Positions 42,910 through 46,827 of a stretch of 64,000 nt of DNA are shown piece by piece. The stretch is from the NCBI RefSeq assembly GCF_025398315.1, contig NZ_JAODOQ010000001.1, positions 4,464,001-4,528,000 of the forward strand, in the 5' to 3' direction. Position 1 is the stretch's first letter. Each line of letters opens with the position of its first letter. The notes below the pieces were generated by a model, which was not told where the DNA came from, did no database searches, and worked only from the letters and a program-made list of their open reading frames with translations. Source of the DNA: Shewanella phaeophyticola. Its GTDB lineage: Bacteria; Pseudomonadota; Gammaproteobacteria; Enterobacterales; Shewanellaceae. A program made the translations under genes and the position numbers.

Positions 42910-43807
42910 ATGCACCATGCGATTACCATCGATGCACTACGAGCCTTGGACGCCATTGAGCGCAAGGGCAGTTTTGCTGCCGCAGCGGCATCACTGTACC
43001 GCGTGCCATCAGCATTAACCTATACCATCAAAAAACTTGAAGACGACATGGGTACCGCGTTGTTTGACCGCAGCAAACAACGGGCACAGCTTACCCCTGC
43101 AGGCAAGTTGGTGTTAGAGCATGGCCGCGATATTTTATTGGCCACAAATCGGTTGATTGACTCTGTGCTGCAGTTAGAGTCTGGCTGGGAGCGTGAAATC
43201 AGGCTTTCACGTGATACGGTGATCCCACAAGCACCGCTGTTTCAGTTAATCGAGCAATTTAATCAGCTCGAACACTCGGTAGACATTACGATTGATGTTG
43301 AAGCGGTCGGTGGTGGCTGGGATGCGTTGCACAGTCGCCGTGCCGACATTGTGATTGGTGCTTCTGGCGAGTTACCTCGAGGTGTATTTAAAACCCATAA
43401 AATAGGTGAAATCGAGTTTGTGTTTGCGGTAGCACCACATCACCCATTGGCATTTGTCGATGGTGTATTAGAAGCCGACAAGCTGACAGAATATGCCTCG
43501 GTGGTGGTAGCCGATACGGCGCAAGTGTTACCGACTCGCAGCAGTGGTCTGTTTAAAAGCAAGCAAGTGATTAAAGTGAACACCATGGAAACCAAAATAG
43601 CGGCCTCAGCGCCAAGGTCTGGGGATTGGTTTTTTACCTCGGCACATGGTGCAAGGTTACTTTGATAGCGGTGAGTTGATTGAAAAACAATGCTCAATAC
43701 CACGACCTAACCAGAGCTTGTATCTTGCCTGGCATAAAGAGCATCAAGGCCGCGGATTTGAGTGGTTTATTGAGCACTTGCCTAGAATTGATTGGGGCTT
43801 GAGCTAG
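42910..43807 (+). pseudogene. LysR-type transcriptional regulator, frameshifted
   Basis: N-terminal helix-turn-helix (ALRALDAIERKGSFAAAAAS; PSALTYTIKKLEDDMGTALF) and effector domain. The frame fails at about 43604 and ends at 43665. The next frame gives the expected ending QGLGIGFLPRHMVQGYFDSG ... LYLAWHKEHQGRGFEWFIEH to a stop at 43807. One extra C (GCCTCAG for GCTCAG) accounts for it. Divergent from doxX-pirin, which it likely regulates. Confidence 0.88.
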
Positions 43808-44074
43808 GTAAATCTGAAAAGGCTCAGGTTTGCGCACAGAAATAAGCTTGATCATTTTTAATTGATTTTTTGACAGCTCTAAATTTATGCAATGATGAAT
43901 TTTCAGAGTGGGAAAGCTAGTTTCATCCAATATTTAAATTAAGGATAACTTTATTAGGTTTAATCATCTTATTTAGAGTCAATCCATACCCTCAAAAAAG
44001 GTTATATTTAGAAGCAATTATTTGAATACTTTAGTAAAGTGAAAATCTCAATGACCATGGAAGGTGCAACCACG

Positions 44075-45424
44075 ATGCTTAACGAACCAACGCCATATCA
44101 AATAATCACAATATTATTGATTATTTTTACCACACTAAACCTTTTTTTTATTTATTCTAATTCCAAAAAGCGTGTGCAAATTACCAATGAAATTGGGCTT
44201 ATAGAGAAGTTACTTGAAAATAAATCTGTGGAAGAAATAGTTAGTGAGATGAAGAAGTCGTTTCAAGACGTTCAACAGAAAAAATCTGCAGGCCAATCCG
44301 TTTTTCAGCAGTTAACAGAATCATTACAACATAACAAAGATAGACTTGCGTTTATTGATGCTGGGTTATTACCTCCAGCCTTTAAATTTGATGACACTGA
44401 GTTATTAAAAGAGCAGATCAATCAATGCAGAGAGCAACAATTGATCTTGATATTGCGGGGAGATGCAACAACTGCTTATTCAAGTTGGACTTGGTACGGT
44501 AGTAAGAGCAAGGGTACTGAAATGGTTATTGCTTACCAAAACTTGTTGCTTAAAGCATTTAATGCTGAATTCGATGTAATTAGACGGCAAATGCGCCACT
44601 CTACGTATGAAACGGCTCGCAAGAAACTGCTAAGACTTGAAGAGCAACTAGCAAAGCTTGGTGAAACAACGAATGTTTGTATTTCGAATGAATACGTTGA
44701 TCTTAAAGTACATGAGCTACTGACTTGGCACAAAGAGTTAGAGCACAAAGAAGAATTGAGCCAGCAAAAGAAAGCCCAACAAGCTCTTTTACGTGAACAA
44801 GCCAAACAATCAGGCCAAGATACAGAAGATCTTGAGGACGAGATTTATTATCGTAAATCTGATTTGAAAAAAGCCAAAATGCTTGCTCTCAAAATGCATG
44901 GCGCTAATGCAGTTGATATGGGGATCAAAATTAGCAAAATGCAAAAGGAAATTGAGAGAATAGAAGCTAAGTTTGAAAGAGCTACTTCACAAGCTCAAAT
45001 CACTAGAGTGGGTTATATCTATGTGATATCTAACATTGGTAGTTTTGGTGAGGGTGTTGTTAAGATTGGCATGACACGCCGACTTGAGCCCATGGATAGG
45101 GTAATCGAATTGGGCGACGCTAGTGTACCTTTTAGGTTTGATGTTCACACCTTAACGTTTGTCGATGATGCGCCTCGAATAGAAAGATTGCTTCATCAAA
45201 AATTTAACGACAAGCGTGTAAATGTTGAAAACTATCGAAAAGAATTCTTCAAGGCCACACCACAAGAAGTATCAAATGCCATGAAAGATCTTGGTATCGA
45301 ATGTGATTGGTATTTTGATGTAGAAGCTAAGGAATACAGAGAAAGCATATTAATACGAGAGGCTATTAAACAAGAACATTCGTCAGTTAACACTATGTCT
45401 AGCAAAATGCCTGAATTTATCTAA
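44075..45424 (+). CDS. Membrane-anchored DUF4041-like / T5orf172 (GIY-YIG-type) protein, paralogue 1
   Basis: About 449 residues from ATG 44075 (GGAAGG upstream); in-frame starts at 44039-44057 are possible. Order: N-terminal transmembrane helix (ITILLIIFTTLNLFFIY), a DUF4041-like helical region (LLKAFNAEFDVIRRQMRHST, LAKLGETTNVCISNEYVDLK), a long charged coiled coil, and a C-terminal T5orf172/MUG113 domain with GYIYVISN, VVKIGMTRR (catalytic-type Arg), RIERLLHQKF and NYRKEFF. T5orf172 is a GIY-YIG nuclease-like fold seen in phage and bacterial proteins. Its tandem partner starts 12 bases downstream. A nuclease role at the membrane is inferred. Confidence 0.75.
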   Translation: MLNEPTPYQIITILLIIFTTLNLFFIYSNSKKRVQITNEIGLIEKLLENKSVEEIVSEMKKSFQDVQQKKSAGQSVFQQLTESLQHNKDRLAFIDAGLLPPAFKFDDTELLKEQINQCREQQLILILRGDATTAYSSWTWYGSKSKGTEMVIAYQNLLLKAFNAEFDVIRRQMRHSTYETARKKLLRLEEQLAKLGETTNVCISNEYVDLKVHELLTWHKELEHKEELSQQKKAQQALLREQAKQSGQDTEDLEDEIYYRKSDLKKAKMLALKMHGANAVDMGIKISKMQKEIERIEAKFERATSQAQITRVGYIYVISNIGSFGEGVVKIGMTRRLEPMDRVIELGDASVPFRFDVHTLTFVDDAPRIERLLHQKFNDKRVNVENYRKEFFKATPQEVSNAMKDLGIECDWYFDVEAKEYRESILIREAIKQEHSSVNTMSSKMPEFI

Positions 45425-45436
45425 AGGATTAGAATT

Positions 45437-46678
45437 ATGTATATTGTTATCGCTATATCCGTATTTTTATTAATATCTACATACTTCCTATTTAATTCAC
45501 GGTCAAAATTAAATGAAGTGAGCTTAAAGCATTCAACATTACAAAAGATTTATGACCCAGCTGCTCTTGAAGAAAAAAAACTCTTAGAACTTTCAAGTGA
45601 GTATAGTGAATTGCAATTTAGCTATCAGACTAAACTAGTAGAATTGAGACAAAGCGAAATTCGTTTATCTCAATACTATTTAGGAGTTGGTACTACTGAT
45701 TCAGTCGCATACAGTCACTTGGTTAGCAGCGAAGATGTTGATGATATTGAGCTTCGGCTGGCTGATGTTAAAGACTCGCTAAAACGTTTAGTCAGTAACA
45801 AGGAAGCTTGTGTATGTAAAATGGGAAATAATGTTGTAGTTAATGGCAGGAGGTCTGAAGCCAAAAAGCTGATAAACCGAGAAATAAAATTACGTCTTCG
45901 TTGCTTAGACAATGAGTTTAAAGCTGCCGCAGCGATGGTGGATTGGAATAATATCAACCGGTTTATAGATAGAGCCAGAGATAAATTCAATGAGATTAAT
46001 CGTTCAGGCACAATTGTTGAAACTTACCTCAAAAGTGAATATCTAGAGCTAAAAATAGAAGAACTAAGGTTATCATACGAGCTAAACCAAGCTAAACAAG
46101 ACATCAAAGAATATGAAAGAGCAGAAGCACAATTAAAACGAGAAGCCGAACGCGAAGATAAACGAATTCAATCGGCAGTGTTGAACGCTGAAAAAGAACG
46201 TAAAATGATGGAAAAATTAGTGGCTGAAGAATTGGCTAAGCTAGAATCTGGTGCAGAAGAACAAAAAGCATTGTATGAACTTCATAAGCAACAGCTAAAT
46301 GAGTTAATTGAAAAAGAAAAGAGAGCAATATCTTTAGCTCAAACTACGCGTGCTGGCTACGTATACATCATCTCAAATAAGGCATCATTTGGGGGAGATG
46401 TGGTTAAAATAGGTATGACTCGTCGTGCAAATCCAAATGAGCGTGTCAAAGAACTCGGGGATGCATCGATCCCTGAATTGTTTGATGTCCATGCATTTGT
46501 GTTTACTGATGACGCCCCTACATTAGAAAAGTACCTACACAATAAGTTTGCTGGTCAGCGTGTGAATATGGTTAATGGTCGTAAAGAGTTTTTCTACGCT
46601 GACCCGAATGATGTATTACGTGAATTATCAGATTATGATGGGAAATTCGAATTAGAAGTTTTTGACGAAGCAAGCTAA
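45437..46678 (+). CDS. Membrane-anchored DUF4041-like / T5orf172 (GIY-YIG-type) protein, paralogue 2
   Basis: 413 residues, AAAGGA before the ATG. Same order as paralogue 1: N-terminal helix (MYIVIAISVFLLISTYFLF), helical DUF4041-like region with REIKLRLRCLDNEFKAAAAM, a very charged coiled coil (about 210-300), then a T5orf172 domain (GYVYIISN, VVKIGMTRR, TLEKYLHNKF, NGRKEFF). The C-terminal domains of the pair are roughly 60% identical, whereas the middle parts have diverged, and this copy has CVCKMG where paralogue 1 has a Trp/Gly-rich loop. Tandem duplication with specialisation is likely. Confidence 0.75.
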   Translation: MYIVIAISVFLLISTYFLFNSRSKLNEVSLKHSTLQKIYDPAALEEKKLLELSSEYSELQFSYQTKLVELRQSEIRLSQYYLGVGTTDSVAYSHLVSSEDVDDIELRLADVKDSLKRLVSNKEACVCKMGNNVVVNGRRSEAKKLINREIKLRLRCLDNEFKAAAAMVDWNNINRFIDRARDKFNEINRSGTIVETYLKSEYLELKIEELRLSYELNQAKQDIKEYERAEAQLKREAEREDKRIQSAVLNAEKERKMMEKLVAEELAKLESGAEEQKALYELHKQQLNELIEKEKRAISLAQTTRAGYVYIISNKASFGGDVVKIGMTRRANPNERVKELGDASIPELFDVHAFVFTDDAPTLEKYLHNKFAGQRVNMVNGRKEFFYADPNDVLRELSDYDGKFELEVFDEAS

Positions 46679-46712
46679 TCAAAATTAACCCCGCATCAGT
46701 CTGAAAAATAAA

Positions 46713-46746
46713 ATAAGCTGCTTAGCTCAACACTAAACAGCTTATA
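46713..46746. terminator. Possible terminator after the T5orf172 pair
   Basis: Imperfect stem TAAGCTGCTTA/TAAACAGCTTA with one mismatch and a nine-base loop, followed by TATTTA; it lies between converging genes. Confidence 0.45.
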
Positions 46747-46827
46747 TTTAAACTGATTTTGCTTTTTTGTAAGGCCTATCTTGAGCTAACTAGATTTGTT
46801 GTAAGCAGCTCGAGCGAAGGTCATCTA

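What the first reader, a model, noticed from the sequence alone, without database searches (positions are those of the whole stretch)
44075..46678. Tandem membrane-anchored DUF4041-like/T5orf172 pair: candidate undescribed two-gene system
Two adjacent genes share one architecture: an N-terminal membrane helix, a helical DUF4041-like region, a long charged coiled coil and a C-terminal GIY-YIG-type T5orf172 domain. The nuclease-like domains are about 60% identical while the middle parts have diverged, which suggests duplication and division of labour. They are 12 bases apart. T5orf172 domains are common in phage and in mobile or defence-related bacterial loci. A pair anchored in the membrane could form a hetero-oligomer that acts on incoming DNA. 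The nuclease, defence and hetero-oligomer roles are inference.
Basis: partly seen in the sequence, partly recalled or inferred. Interest (0 to 1): 0.75.

Follow-up and report, generated by a model that had tools for sequence, protein, structure and literature searches.

The report
Paired membrane nucleases that block phages
Two neighbouring genes in a Shewanella-type bacterium each encode a membrane-tethered DNA-cutting protein of the recently described SNIPE phage-defence family; that defence is described as one gene, but here two different versions travel as a fixed pair, which suggests an unreported two-part form.

Summary
Genes A (44075-45424) and B (45437-46678) each have an N-terminal membrane helix, DUF4041, a long helix and a GIY-YIG (T5orf172) nuclease. 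They are not an undescribed system: both match PADLOC PD-Lambda-1 (2e-106, 3e-92), now called SNIPE (Nature 2026), a membrane nuclease that cuts siphophage DNA during injection. I did not find the pairing in print. I gathered 20 A-B pairs (18 lineages below 90% identity), always A upstream, gap -4 to 14 bases. Of 17 B-type loci from a B-based scan, 16 have A next to them and one starts at a contig end; 7 of 7 A genes from family-wide searches have B; none of 62 single SNIPE genes from the scan has a partner in the DNA held. A and B are each one clade (support 100), distances co-vary (r 0.97), and 9 of 10 checked nuclease positions are invariant in all 40 rows. The 13 clade-fixed A/B differences lie in or beside DUF4041 and in the long helix, none in the nuclease. 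Relatives with an empty site show a ~3 kb low-GC insert. Best reading: a two-gene SNIPE variant, perhaps a heteromer; heteromer and defence activity of this pair are inferred.

The parts
44075..45424 (+). Gene A: SNIPE-type protein, 449 aa, keeps the C-terminal tail (alternative GTG start 44039)
   Evidence: PADLOC PD-Lambda-1 2.2e-106; phrog_1847 7e-100; AlphaFold2 pLDDT 82.8
44099..44155 (+). A: predicted membrane helix, about residues 9-27
   Evidence: Kyte-Doolittle mean 2.26 over 19 residues; helix 7-49 in model
44543..44707 (+). A: DUF4041, residues 157-211
   Evidence: Pfam PF13250, 45.1 bits over cut-off 27
44687..45007 (+). A: long charged helix, residues 205-311 (model helices 205-273 and 277-311)
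45011..45286 (+). A: GIY-YIG / T5orf172 nuclease domain, residues 313-404; E370 (45182-45184) aligns with SNIPE catalytic E414
45329..45418 (+). A: C-terminal tail helix, residues 419-448; this tail aligns with the tail of single-gene SNIPEs and is absent from B
45425..45436 (+). 12-base A-B gap with AGGA ribosome site; -4 to 14 bases in the other 19 pairs
   Evidence: window and 16 loci; three further pairs read from the ORF table (13, 10 and 2 bases)
45437..46678 (+). Gene B: shorter SNIPE-type protein, 413 aa, without the tail
   Evidence: PADLOC PD-Lambda-1 2.7e-92; AlphaFold2 pLDDT 84.3
45440..45496 (+). B: predicted membrane helix, about residues 2-20
   Evidence: Kyte-Doolittle 2.46; helix 2-80
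45887..46054 (+). B: DUF4041, residues 151-206; B-specific invariant Cys156 at 45902-45904; Cys125 at 45809-45811 lies upstream of the Pfam match
   Evidence: Pfam 26.3 bits, just under cut-off 27, in the protein scan and 31.3 in the six-frame search; both Cys columns 20 of 20 B, 0 of 20 A
46034..46351 (+). B: long charged helix, residues 200-305
46355..46621 (+). B: GIY-YIG / T5orf172 nuclease domain, residues 307-395; E364 (46526-46528) aligns with SNIPE E414
   Evidence: structural matches to Slx1 (6seh_C Z 7.7, model residues 303-412) and At-HIGLE (7wme Z 7.5)
46713..46745 (.). 14-pair hairpin with a T run on the - strand; likely terminator between B and the MFS gene
   Evidence: 4 terminator-like sites found, 1.9 expected from shuffles
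43827..46827 (.). Insert holding A, B and flanking DNA (GC 36% against 45% in flanks); absent at the same site in three relatives

Best explanation
A and B are two paralogous SNIPE proteins (PD-lambda-1 family) that form a dedicated two-gene variant of SNIPE. Both sit in the inner membrane by one N-terminal helix, with DUF4041, a long helix and the nuclease in the cytoplasm. As in E. coli SNIPE, DUF4041 would bind DNA and the phage tape measure protein when a siphophage injects its genome, and the GIY-YIG domains would then cut the entering DNA. Two different versions are kept together because they act jointly, most simply as a heteromer through the long helices: two nuclease sites but two different DUF4041 faces, and one protein (B) without the C-terminal tail. 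Shown here: family, predicted architecture, kept catalytic-type residues, purifying selection, strict pairing in the samples taken, shared inheritance, insertion as a unit. Taken from the E. coli protein: membrane topology, tape measure binding, DNA cutting. Inferred: joint action and heteromer. I put SNIPE-type defence at about 0.85 and functional interdependence of A and B at about 0.6.
For: PADLOC, Pfam and PHROG matches. The Glu equivalent to E414 is present in 20 of 20 A, 20 of 20 B and 110 of 110 other homologues; of 10 nuclease positions checked, 9 are invariant in all 40 A and B rows and one Tyr is Phe in 2 of 20 B. Same predicted architecture in both. B to A: 16 of 17 B-type loci of the B-based scan have A directly upstream, the 17th begins at a contig end; 0 of the 62 other SNIPE loci of that scan has a second copy in the DNA held. 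A to B: 7 of 7 A-type genes found by searches with A or with the family profile have B. Gap -4 to 14 bases in 20 of 20 pairs. A and B each one clade, SH-aLRT 100. Distances of A against B: r 0.974 for 20 pairs (0 of 2000 permutations as high), 0.967 for 18 lineages (0 of 5000). dN/dS 0.124 and 0.106 against G046. Columns fixed in both clades: nuclease 43 same, 0 different; rest 14 same, 13 different. Empty sites.
Against: No experiment on either gene. No complex could be modelled here, and 20 pairs are too few for contact prediction. The A-without-B test rests on only 7 A genes, because the other 13 were found through their B neighbour. Strict pairing could also come from hitch-hiking in one mobile cassette, and distance correlation is expected for any linked gene pair. 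Clear defence neighbours are few. Three scans of viral contigs found no relative (these rely on exact short peptide patterns).
Confidence: 0.6

Rival explanations
1. A and B are two independent SNIPE systems stored side by side, each with its own tape measure or host-protein target, so the pair simply widens the phage range.
For: DUF4041 and the N-terminal region, the parts thought to set specificity (PMC13190303 section 9), are where A and B differ most. Both keep the checked nuclease residues. Each is about the size of a one-gene system.
Against: Independent systems should often be found alone: no solo B among 17 loci (one cut at a contig end) and no solo A among 7, while the 62 other SNIPE loci of the same scan show no second copy in the DNA held. 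Fixed order and short or overlapping junction.
Confidence: 0.25
2. B is a regulatory or inhibitory partner of A (for example it holds A inactive until injection), with its nuclease kept mainly for DNA binding.
For: B lacks the C-terminal tail that A shares with single-gene SNIPE. SNIPE without its membrane helix is toxic through its nuclease and is proposed to be auto-inhibited at the membrane (PMC13190303 passages), so a partner that restrains it is plausible. B has its own invariant cysteines in and just upstream of DUF4041.
Against: The catalytic-type Glu and 8 other checked nuclease positions are kept in 20 of 20 B (one Tyr is Phe in 2), with purifying selection as strong as on A.
Confidence: 0.1
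3. The pair is not a defence system but handles DNA at the membrane for the cell itself, for example DNA uptake or chromosome upkeep.
For: Nothing positive beyond the general domain make-up; in most of the 16 pair loci sampled no clear defence neighbour was found.
Against: Patchy distribution (3 of 146 family genomes, 6 of 394 order genomes), a low-GC insert with empty sites in relatives, and near full-length profile matches to a tested anti-phage protein.
Confidence: 0.05

Closest known systems
SNIPE (PD-lambda-1), E. coli; Vassallo et al. 2022 PMC9519451, Saxton et al. 2026 PMC13190303
   Same: N-terminal membrane helix, DUF4041, long helix, C-terminal GIY-YIG with the same Glu (E414 = A E370 = B E364); near full-length profile matches
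   Different: SNIPE is described as one protein; here two divergent versions form a fixed two-gene unit, and B lacks the C-terminal tail. The A and B clades do not include E. coli SNIPE
Streptococcus thermophilus PD-Lambda-1 (PMC12322248; 12 of 16 passages seen)
   Same: Homologue (by the paper's naming) with measured anti-phage activity for one of two versions tested
   Different: No pair is mentioned in the passages seen; its sequence was not compared here
PADLOC candidate PDC-S57 and T5orf172-domain proteins of viruses
   Same: Nuclease domain (A 8.7e-21, B 1.2e-19; viral fold matches). The best viral fold match, a siphovirus protein named helicase (A0A8S5M6J8, 1.9e-22, 378 columns), spans nearly the whole of B and may itself be SNIPE-like
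   Different: Apart from that row, matches cover mainly the nuclease; scores are far lower than for PD-Lambda-1
Zorya, Kiwa (membrane defence systems acting at or near injection)
   Same: Works like: membrane-located defence at genome entry (PMC13190303 and PMC12904381 passages)
   Different: No Zorya or Kiwa model matched A or B at E up to 0.1; they are multi-gene systems with separate sensor and effector

Membership tests
SNIPE / PD-lambda-1 | Near full-length profile match | tested here: met
   PADLOC PDLC03976 2.2e-106 (A), 2.7e-92 (B), covering residues 44-437 and 31-400
SNIPE / PD-lambda-1 | N-terminal membrane helix | tested here: met
   Hydropathy peak in both proteins of 20 pairs; topology not measured. 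The SNIPE paper predicts it in 66% of homologues only
SNIPE / PD-lambda-1 | DUF4041 | tested here: met
   A 45.1 bits; B 26.3 bits in protein scan (cut-off 27) and 31.3 in the six-frame search
SNIPE / PD-lambda-1 | C-terminal GIY-YIG nuclease with catalytic Glu (E414) | tested here: met
   modest fold match to Slx1
SNIPE / PD-lambda-1 | Described as a single gene | tested here: not met
   In the genomes sampled A and B occur as two adjacent genes (B to A 16 of 17, one at a contig end; A to B 7 of 7). Hence 'variant', not plain member; whether one gene suffices in function is untested
SNIPE / PD-lambda-1 | Protects against siphophages, binds tape measure protein, cuts DNA at injection | not testable with these tools
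   Needs experiment
T5orf172 / MUG113 GIY-YIG domain | Profile over curated cut-off | tested here: met
   62.7/63.4 bits (A), 56.4/57.7 bits (B), cut-offs 20/22.3

The most novel reading that the evidence does not exclude
SNIPE has an obligate heteromeric form: two divergent membrane nucleases, spread as one cassette among gammaproteobacteria and perhaps beyond, that must assemble together so that two different DUF4041 faces read the injection complex and two nuclease sites cut both strands of the entering DNA.
Probability: 0.4. Interest if true: 0.62.

Novelty: new variant of a known kind. Interest (0 to 1): 0.5.

Why it matters
SNIPE is a recently explained defence that tells phage DNA from self DNA by where it enters. 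From the profile scores, annotation tools would be expected to report this pair as two PD-Lambda-1 genes, so a two-part form would be overlooked (inference). If A and B depend on each other, comparing them would show which DUF4041 face senses the phage and which handles DNA, and whether double-strand cutting needs two nuclease subunits; both can be tested in laboratory strains.

Tried and rejected
Undescribed system: rejected by the PADLOC match and the two papers. Recent tandem duplication or gene conversion of the nuclease: not supported; A-B nuclease identity is the same within a locus (62.1%, n 19) and between loci (61.6%, n 381). Separate origin of A and B: open; the first tree put A and B apart, but holding them together as one clade gave a higher likelihood and was not rejected (p-AU 0.78), so one ancient duplication is possible. 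Degenerate partner: not supported, B keeps its checked nuclease residues.

Phage- or plasmid-borne pair: not found, but not excluded. With B as query, 40 phage records matched, one place each, all below 60% identity; 186 plasmid records matched with 192 places, none covering 80% of B. With A, 186 plasmid records with 194 places, 12 covering 80% or more; the 15 listed rows are 32-37% identical. The few plasmids with more than one place were not inspected, and A was not searched in phages. Three viral-contig scans gave 7, 30 and 38 pattern matches and no relative.

Two-match genomes that are not pairs: G257 and G454 and G1030 look like pieces of one gene; G137 has two partial matches on different contigs. 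Rows dropped before the tree: ORFs under 330 aa or under 200 bits, and near-identical copies (187 to 150), then 45 of 110 singles drawn at random. Whole-model Foldseek for A gave no hit at E 0.001 in solved structures; the solved-structure sequence search gave 5 weak rows, mostly coiled-coil in type; the VIA list for B is dominated by long helices, so only the Slx1/HIGLE rows over the nuclease were used, and their Z is below 8. Promoter scan: 8 sites against 9.3 expected, uninformative. Net charge of the DUF4041 core does not set A apart from singles (0.95 and 0.92; B 2.4).

Paper searches for DUF4041 (3 papers), SNIPE/ManYZ/GIY-YIG (7, two of them relevant), PD-lambda-1 (12 papers), SNIPE/anti-phage/tape measure (2) and T5orf172/phage defence (0) listed no title or abstract start on a paired form; in the SNIPE paper 'tandem' occurs once (mass spectrometry) and 'dimer' not at all. 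Most of the 12 PD-lambda-1 papers were seen as listings only; supplements and papers outside the library were not seen.

Full report
OBSERVATION. Pfam finds DUF4041 and T5orf172/MUG113 in both; B's DUF4041 is just under the curated cut-off in the protein scan and over it in the six-frame search. AlphaFold2 models (33 and 34 aligned sequences; mean pLDDT 82.8 and 84.3, pTM 0.48 and 0.51) show the same build in both: N-terminal helix, helical DUF4041 region with short strands, long helices, and a compact C-terminal nuclease. The nuclease part of B aligns with Slx1 (Z 7.7, rmsd 2.9, 91 residues) and At-HIGLE (Z 7.5); Z values of this size are modest, but they agree with the sequence profiles.

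WHAT IT IS. Both proteins match the PADLOC model PD-Lambda-1 over most of their length (2.2e-106 and 2.7e-92). PD-lambda-1 was found by functional selection in E. coli (PMC9519451, passages seen) and is now called SNIPE (PMC13190303; outline, abstract, sections 8 and 9 and passages seen). That paper reports an inner-membrane protein whose nuclease cuts phage DNA during injection, whose DUF4041 contacts DNA and tape measure proteins, and whose E414A mutant loses defence. In the alignment E414 corresponds to A E370 and B E364; this Glu is present in 20 of 20 A, 20 of 20 B and 110 of 110 other homologues gathered here. So the single parts are known, and 'undescribed' does not hold.

THE PAIR. What I did not find in print is the pairing (searches; word search of the SNIPE paper). 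In 146 genomes of the family, 22 had a match to A and 3 had an adjacent pair. In 394 genomes of the order, 35 had a SNIPE match at E 1e-20 and 6 had a pair. In samples of 369 class and 398 phylum genomes only the window's own genome had one. Of these, 17 are B-type: 16 have an A-type gene directly upstream, and the 17th begins at a contig end. The other 62 hold SNIPE genes with no second copy in the DNA held, which is up to 6 kb a side and less at contig ends. Pooling all sources and dropping duplicates gives 20 pairs and one further B, in 18 lineages at 90% identity.

Hosts are mainly gammaproteobacteria: Shewanella, Vibrio, Alteromonas, Marinomonas, Motilimonas, Pseudoalteromonas, Idiomarina, Colwellia, Aeromonas, and bins labelled Glaciecola, Oceanospirillaceae and Pseudomonadales; many of these are marine (recalled). 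Single metagenome bins labelled Robiginitomaculum (pair), Kordiimonadaceae (B only, at the contig end) and Opitutales (pair) also appear; their labels could reflect mis-binned contigs.

The order is A then B in 20 of 20 pairs, and the gap is -4 to 14 bases (window and 16 loci; three more from the ORF table). In a tree of 86 rows (20 A, 20 B, 45 of 110 singles drawn at random, and E. coli SNIPE) A and B are each one side of a branch with SH-aLRT 100. This quick tree sets A and B apart, but an AU test does not reject A+B as one clade and found it more likely (p 0.78), so one ancient duplication is possible. Pairwise distances of A and B co-vary (r 0.974 for 20 pairs, 0 of 2000 permutations as high; 0.967 for 18 lineages, 0 of 5000), as expected for genes inherited and transferred together; this alone does not prove contact. 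Median identity is 50% in A and 49% in B. Both evolve under purifying selection (dN/dS 0.124 and 0.106 against G046).

DIVISION OF LABOUR. Of columns conserved to 90% in both clades, the nuclease has 43 with the same residue and 0 with different residues; the rest of the protein has 14 and 13 (Fisher p 4e-7; columns of related sequences are not independent, so the p value is a guide only). The 13 lie in or just beside DUF4041 (9) and in the long helix (4). B lacks the C-terminal tail of A and of single SNIPEs. B has two cysteines that are fixed in 20 of 20 B and absent from 20 of 20 A (Cys125: also 6 of 110 singles; Cys156: 0 of 110). So the pair kept two equal nuclease domains and split the parts that, in E. 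coli SNIPE, bind DNA and the tape measure protein.

SETTING. In G091 (95-98% DNA identity in the flanks), G125 (87-92%) and G058 (77-81%) the same flanking genes lie next to each other with no pair; in G091 and G125 the two aligned flanks are 57 bases apart. The pair is thus a ~3 kb insert (about 43827-46827) with GC 36% against 45% around it; besides A and B it holds no ORF of 100 aa or more. I scanned 61 of 118 neighbouring ORFs (110 aa or more) of 16 pair loci against PADLOC and traced 26 of them singly. Found: a CBASS cyclase, a 2TM effector and DRT8 beside the Vibrio penaeicida pair; a bSEFIR match beside an Oceanospirillaceae pair; a candidate PDC-S39 gene beside the Idiomarina pair; a partial MkoA match beside a Pseudomonadales pair. 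Helicase-type matches at the Pseudoalteromonas locus and a sigma-54 activator at the Marinomonas locus look like ordinary genes. A PDC-S31 match was not traced, and one search showed only 25 of its 92 families. No background was measured, so no defence-island habit is shown or excluded.

MECHANISM. My best reading is a two-gene SNIPE: two membrane-tethered nucleases acting at the point of phage DNA entry, dependent on each other and perhaps joined through the long helices. Membrane place, tape measure contact and DNA cutting are carried over from E. coli SNIPE; interdependence is inferred from strict pairing; the heteromer is a further inference. The main rival, two stacked independent SNIPEs, is weakened by the absence of solo B genes (17 loci) and solo A genes (7) but not excluded.

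Noticed in passing
window 42910-43665: The LysR-type regulator just upstream of the pair is frameshifted in the window (251 aa), while four relatives carry an intact gene of 297-298 aa. It could be a real pseudogene or a sequencing error.
   Followed up: partly
window, B residues Cys125 and Cys156 (45809-45811, 45902-45904): Two cysteines fixed in all 20 B proteins, absent from A and rare or absent in single SNIPEs; possible metal site or redox switch in or beside DUF4041.
   Followed up: partly
L088:7556-11009 (Vibrio penaeicida): The pair is followed directly by a CBASS cyclase, a 2TM effector and a DRT8 reverse transcriptase gene.
   Followed up: partly
L094:7703-9448 (Idiomarina zobellii): A candidate defence gene of the PDC-S39 type follows the pair (2.5e-37).
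   Followed up: no
L075 / L072 (G1030): A single SNIPE gene appears split in two by a transposase-like insert read on the other strand; identification of the insert is by eye.
   Followed up: partly
L154 and L155 (same contig CATOSB010000015.1): Two equally scoring single SNIPE genes about 15 kb apart on one metagenome contig; a real duplication or an assembly effect.
   Followed up: no
L080:11126-12112 (G114): A transposase-like ORF lies upstream of the pair in this genome of the window's genus (label by eye from the sequence), where the pair sits at a different site from the window's.
   Followed up: no
window 1-64000: Of 43 other window proteins scanned, one matches the PADLOC candidate PDC-M72A (2.2e-84) and one an ankyrin model; 14 of the 43 scanned singly were neither, so the genes were not located.
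   Followed up: partly
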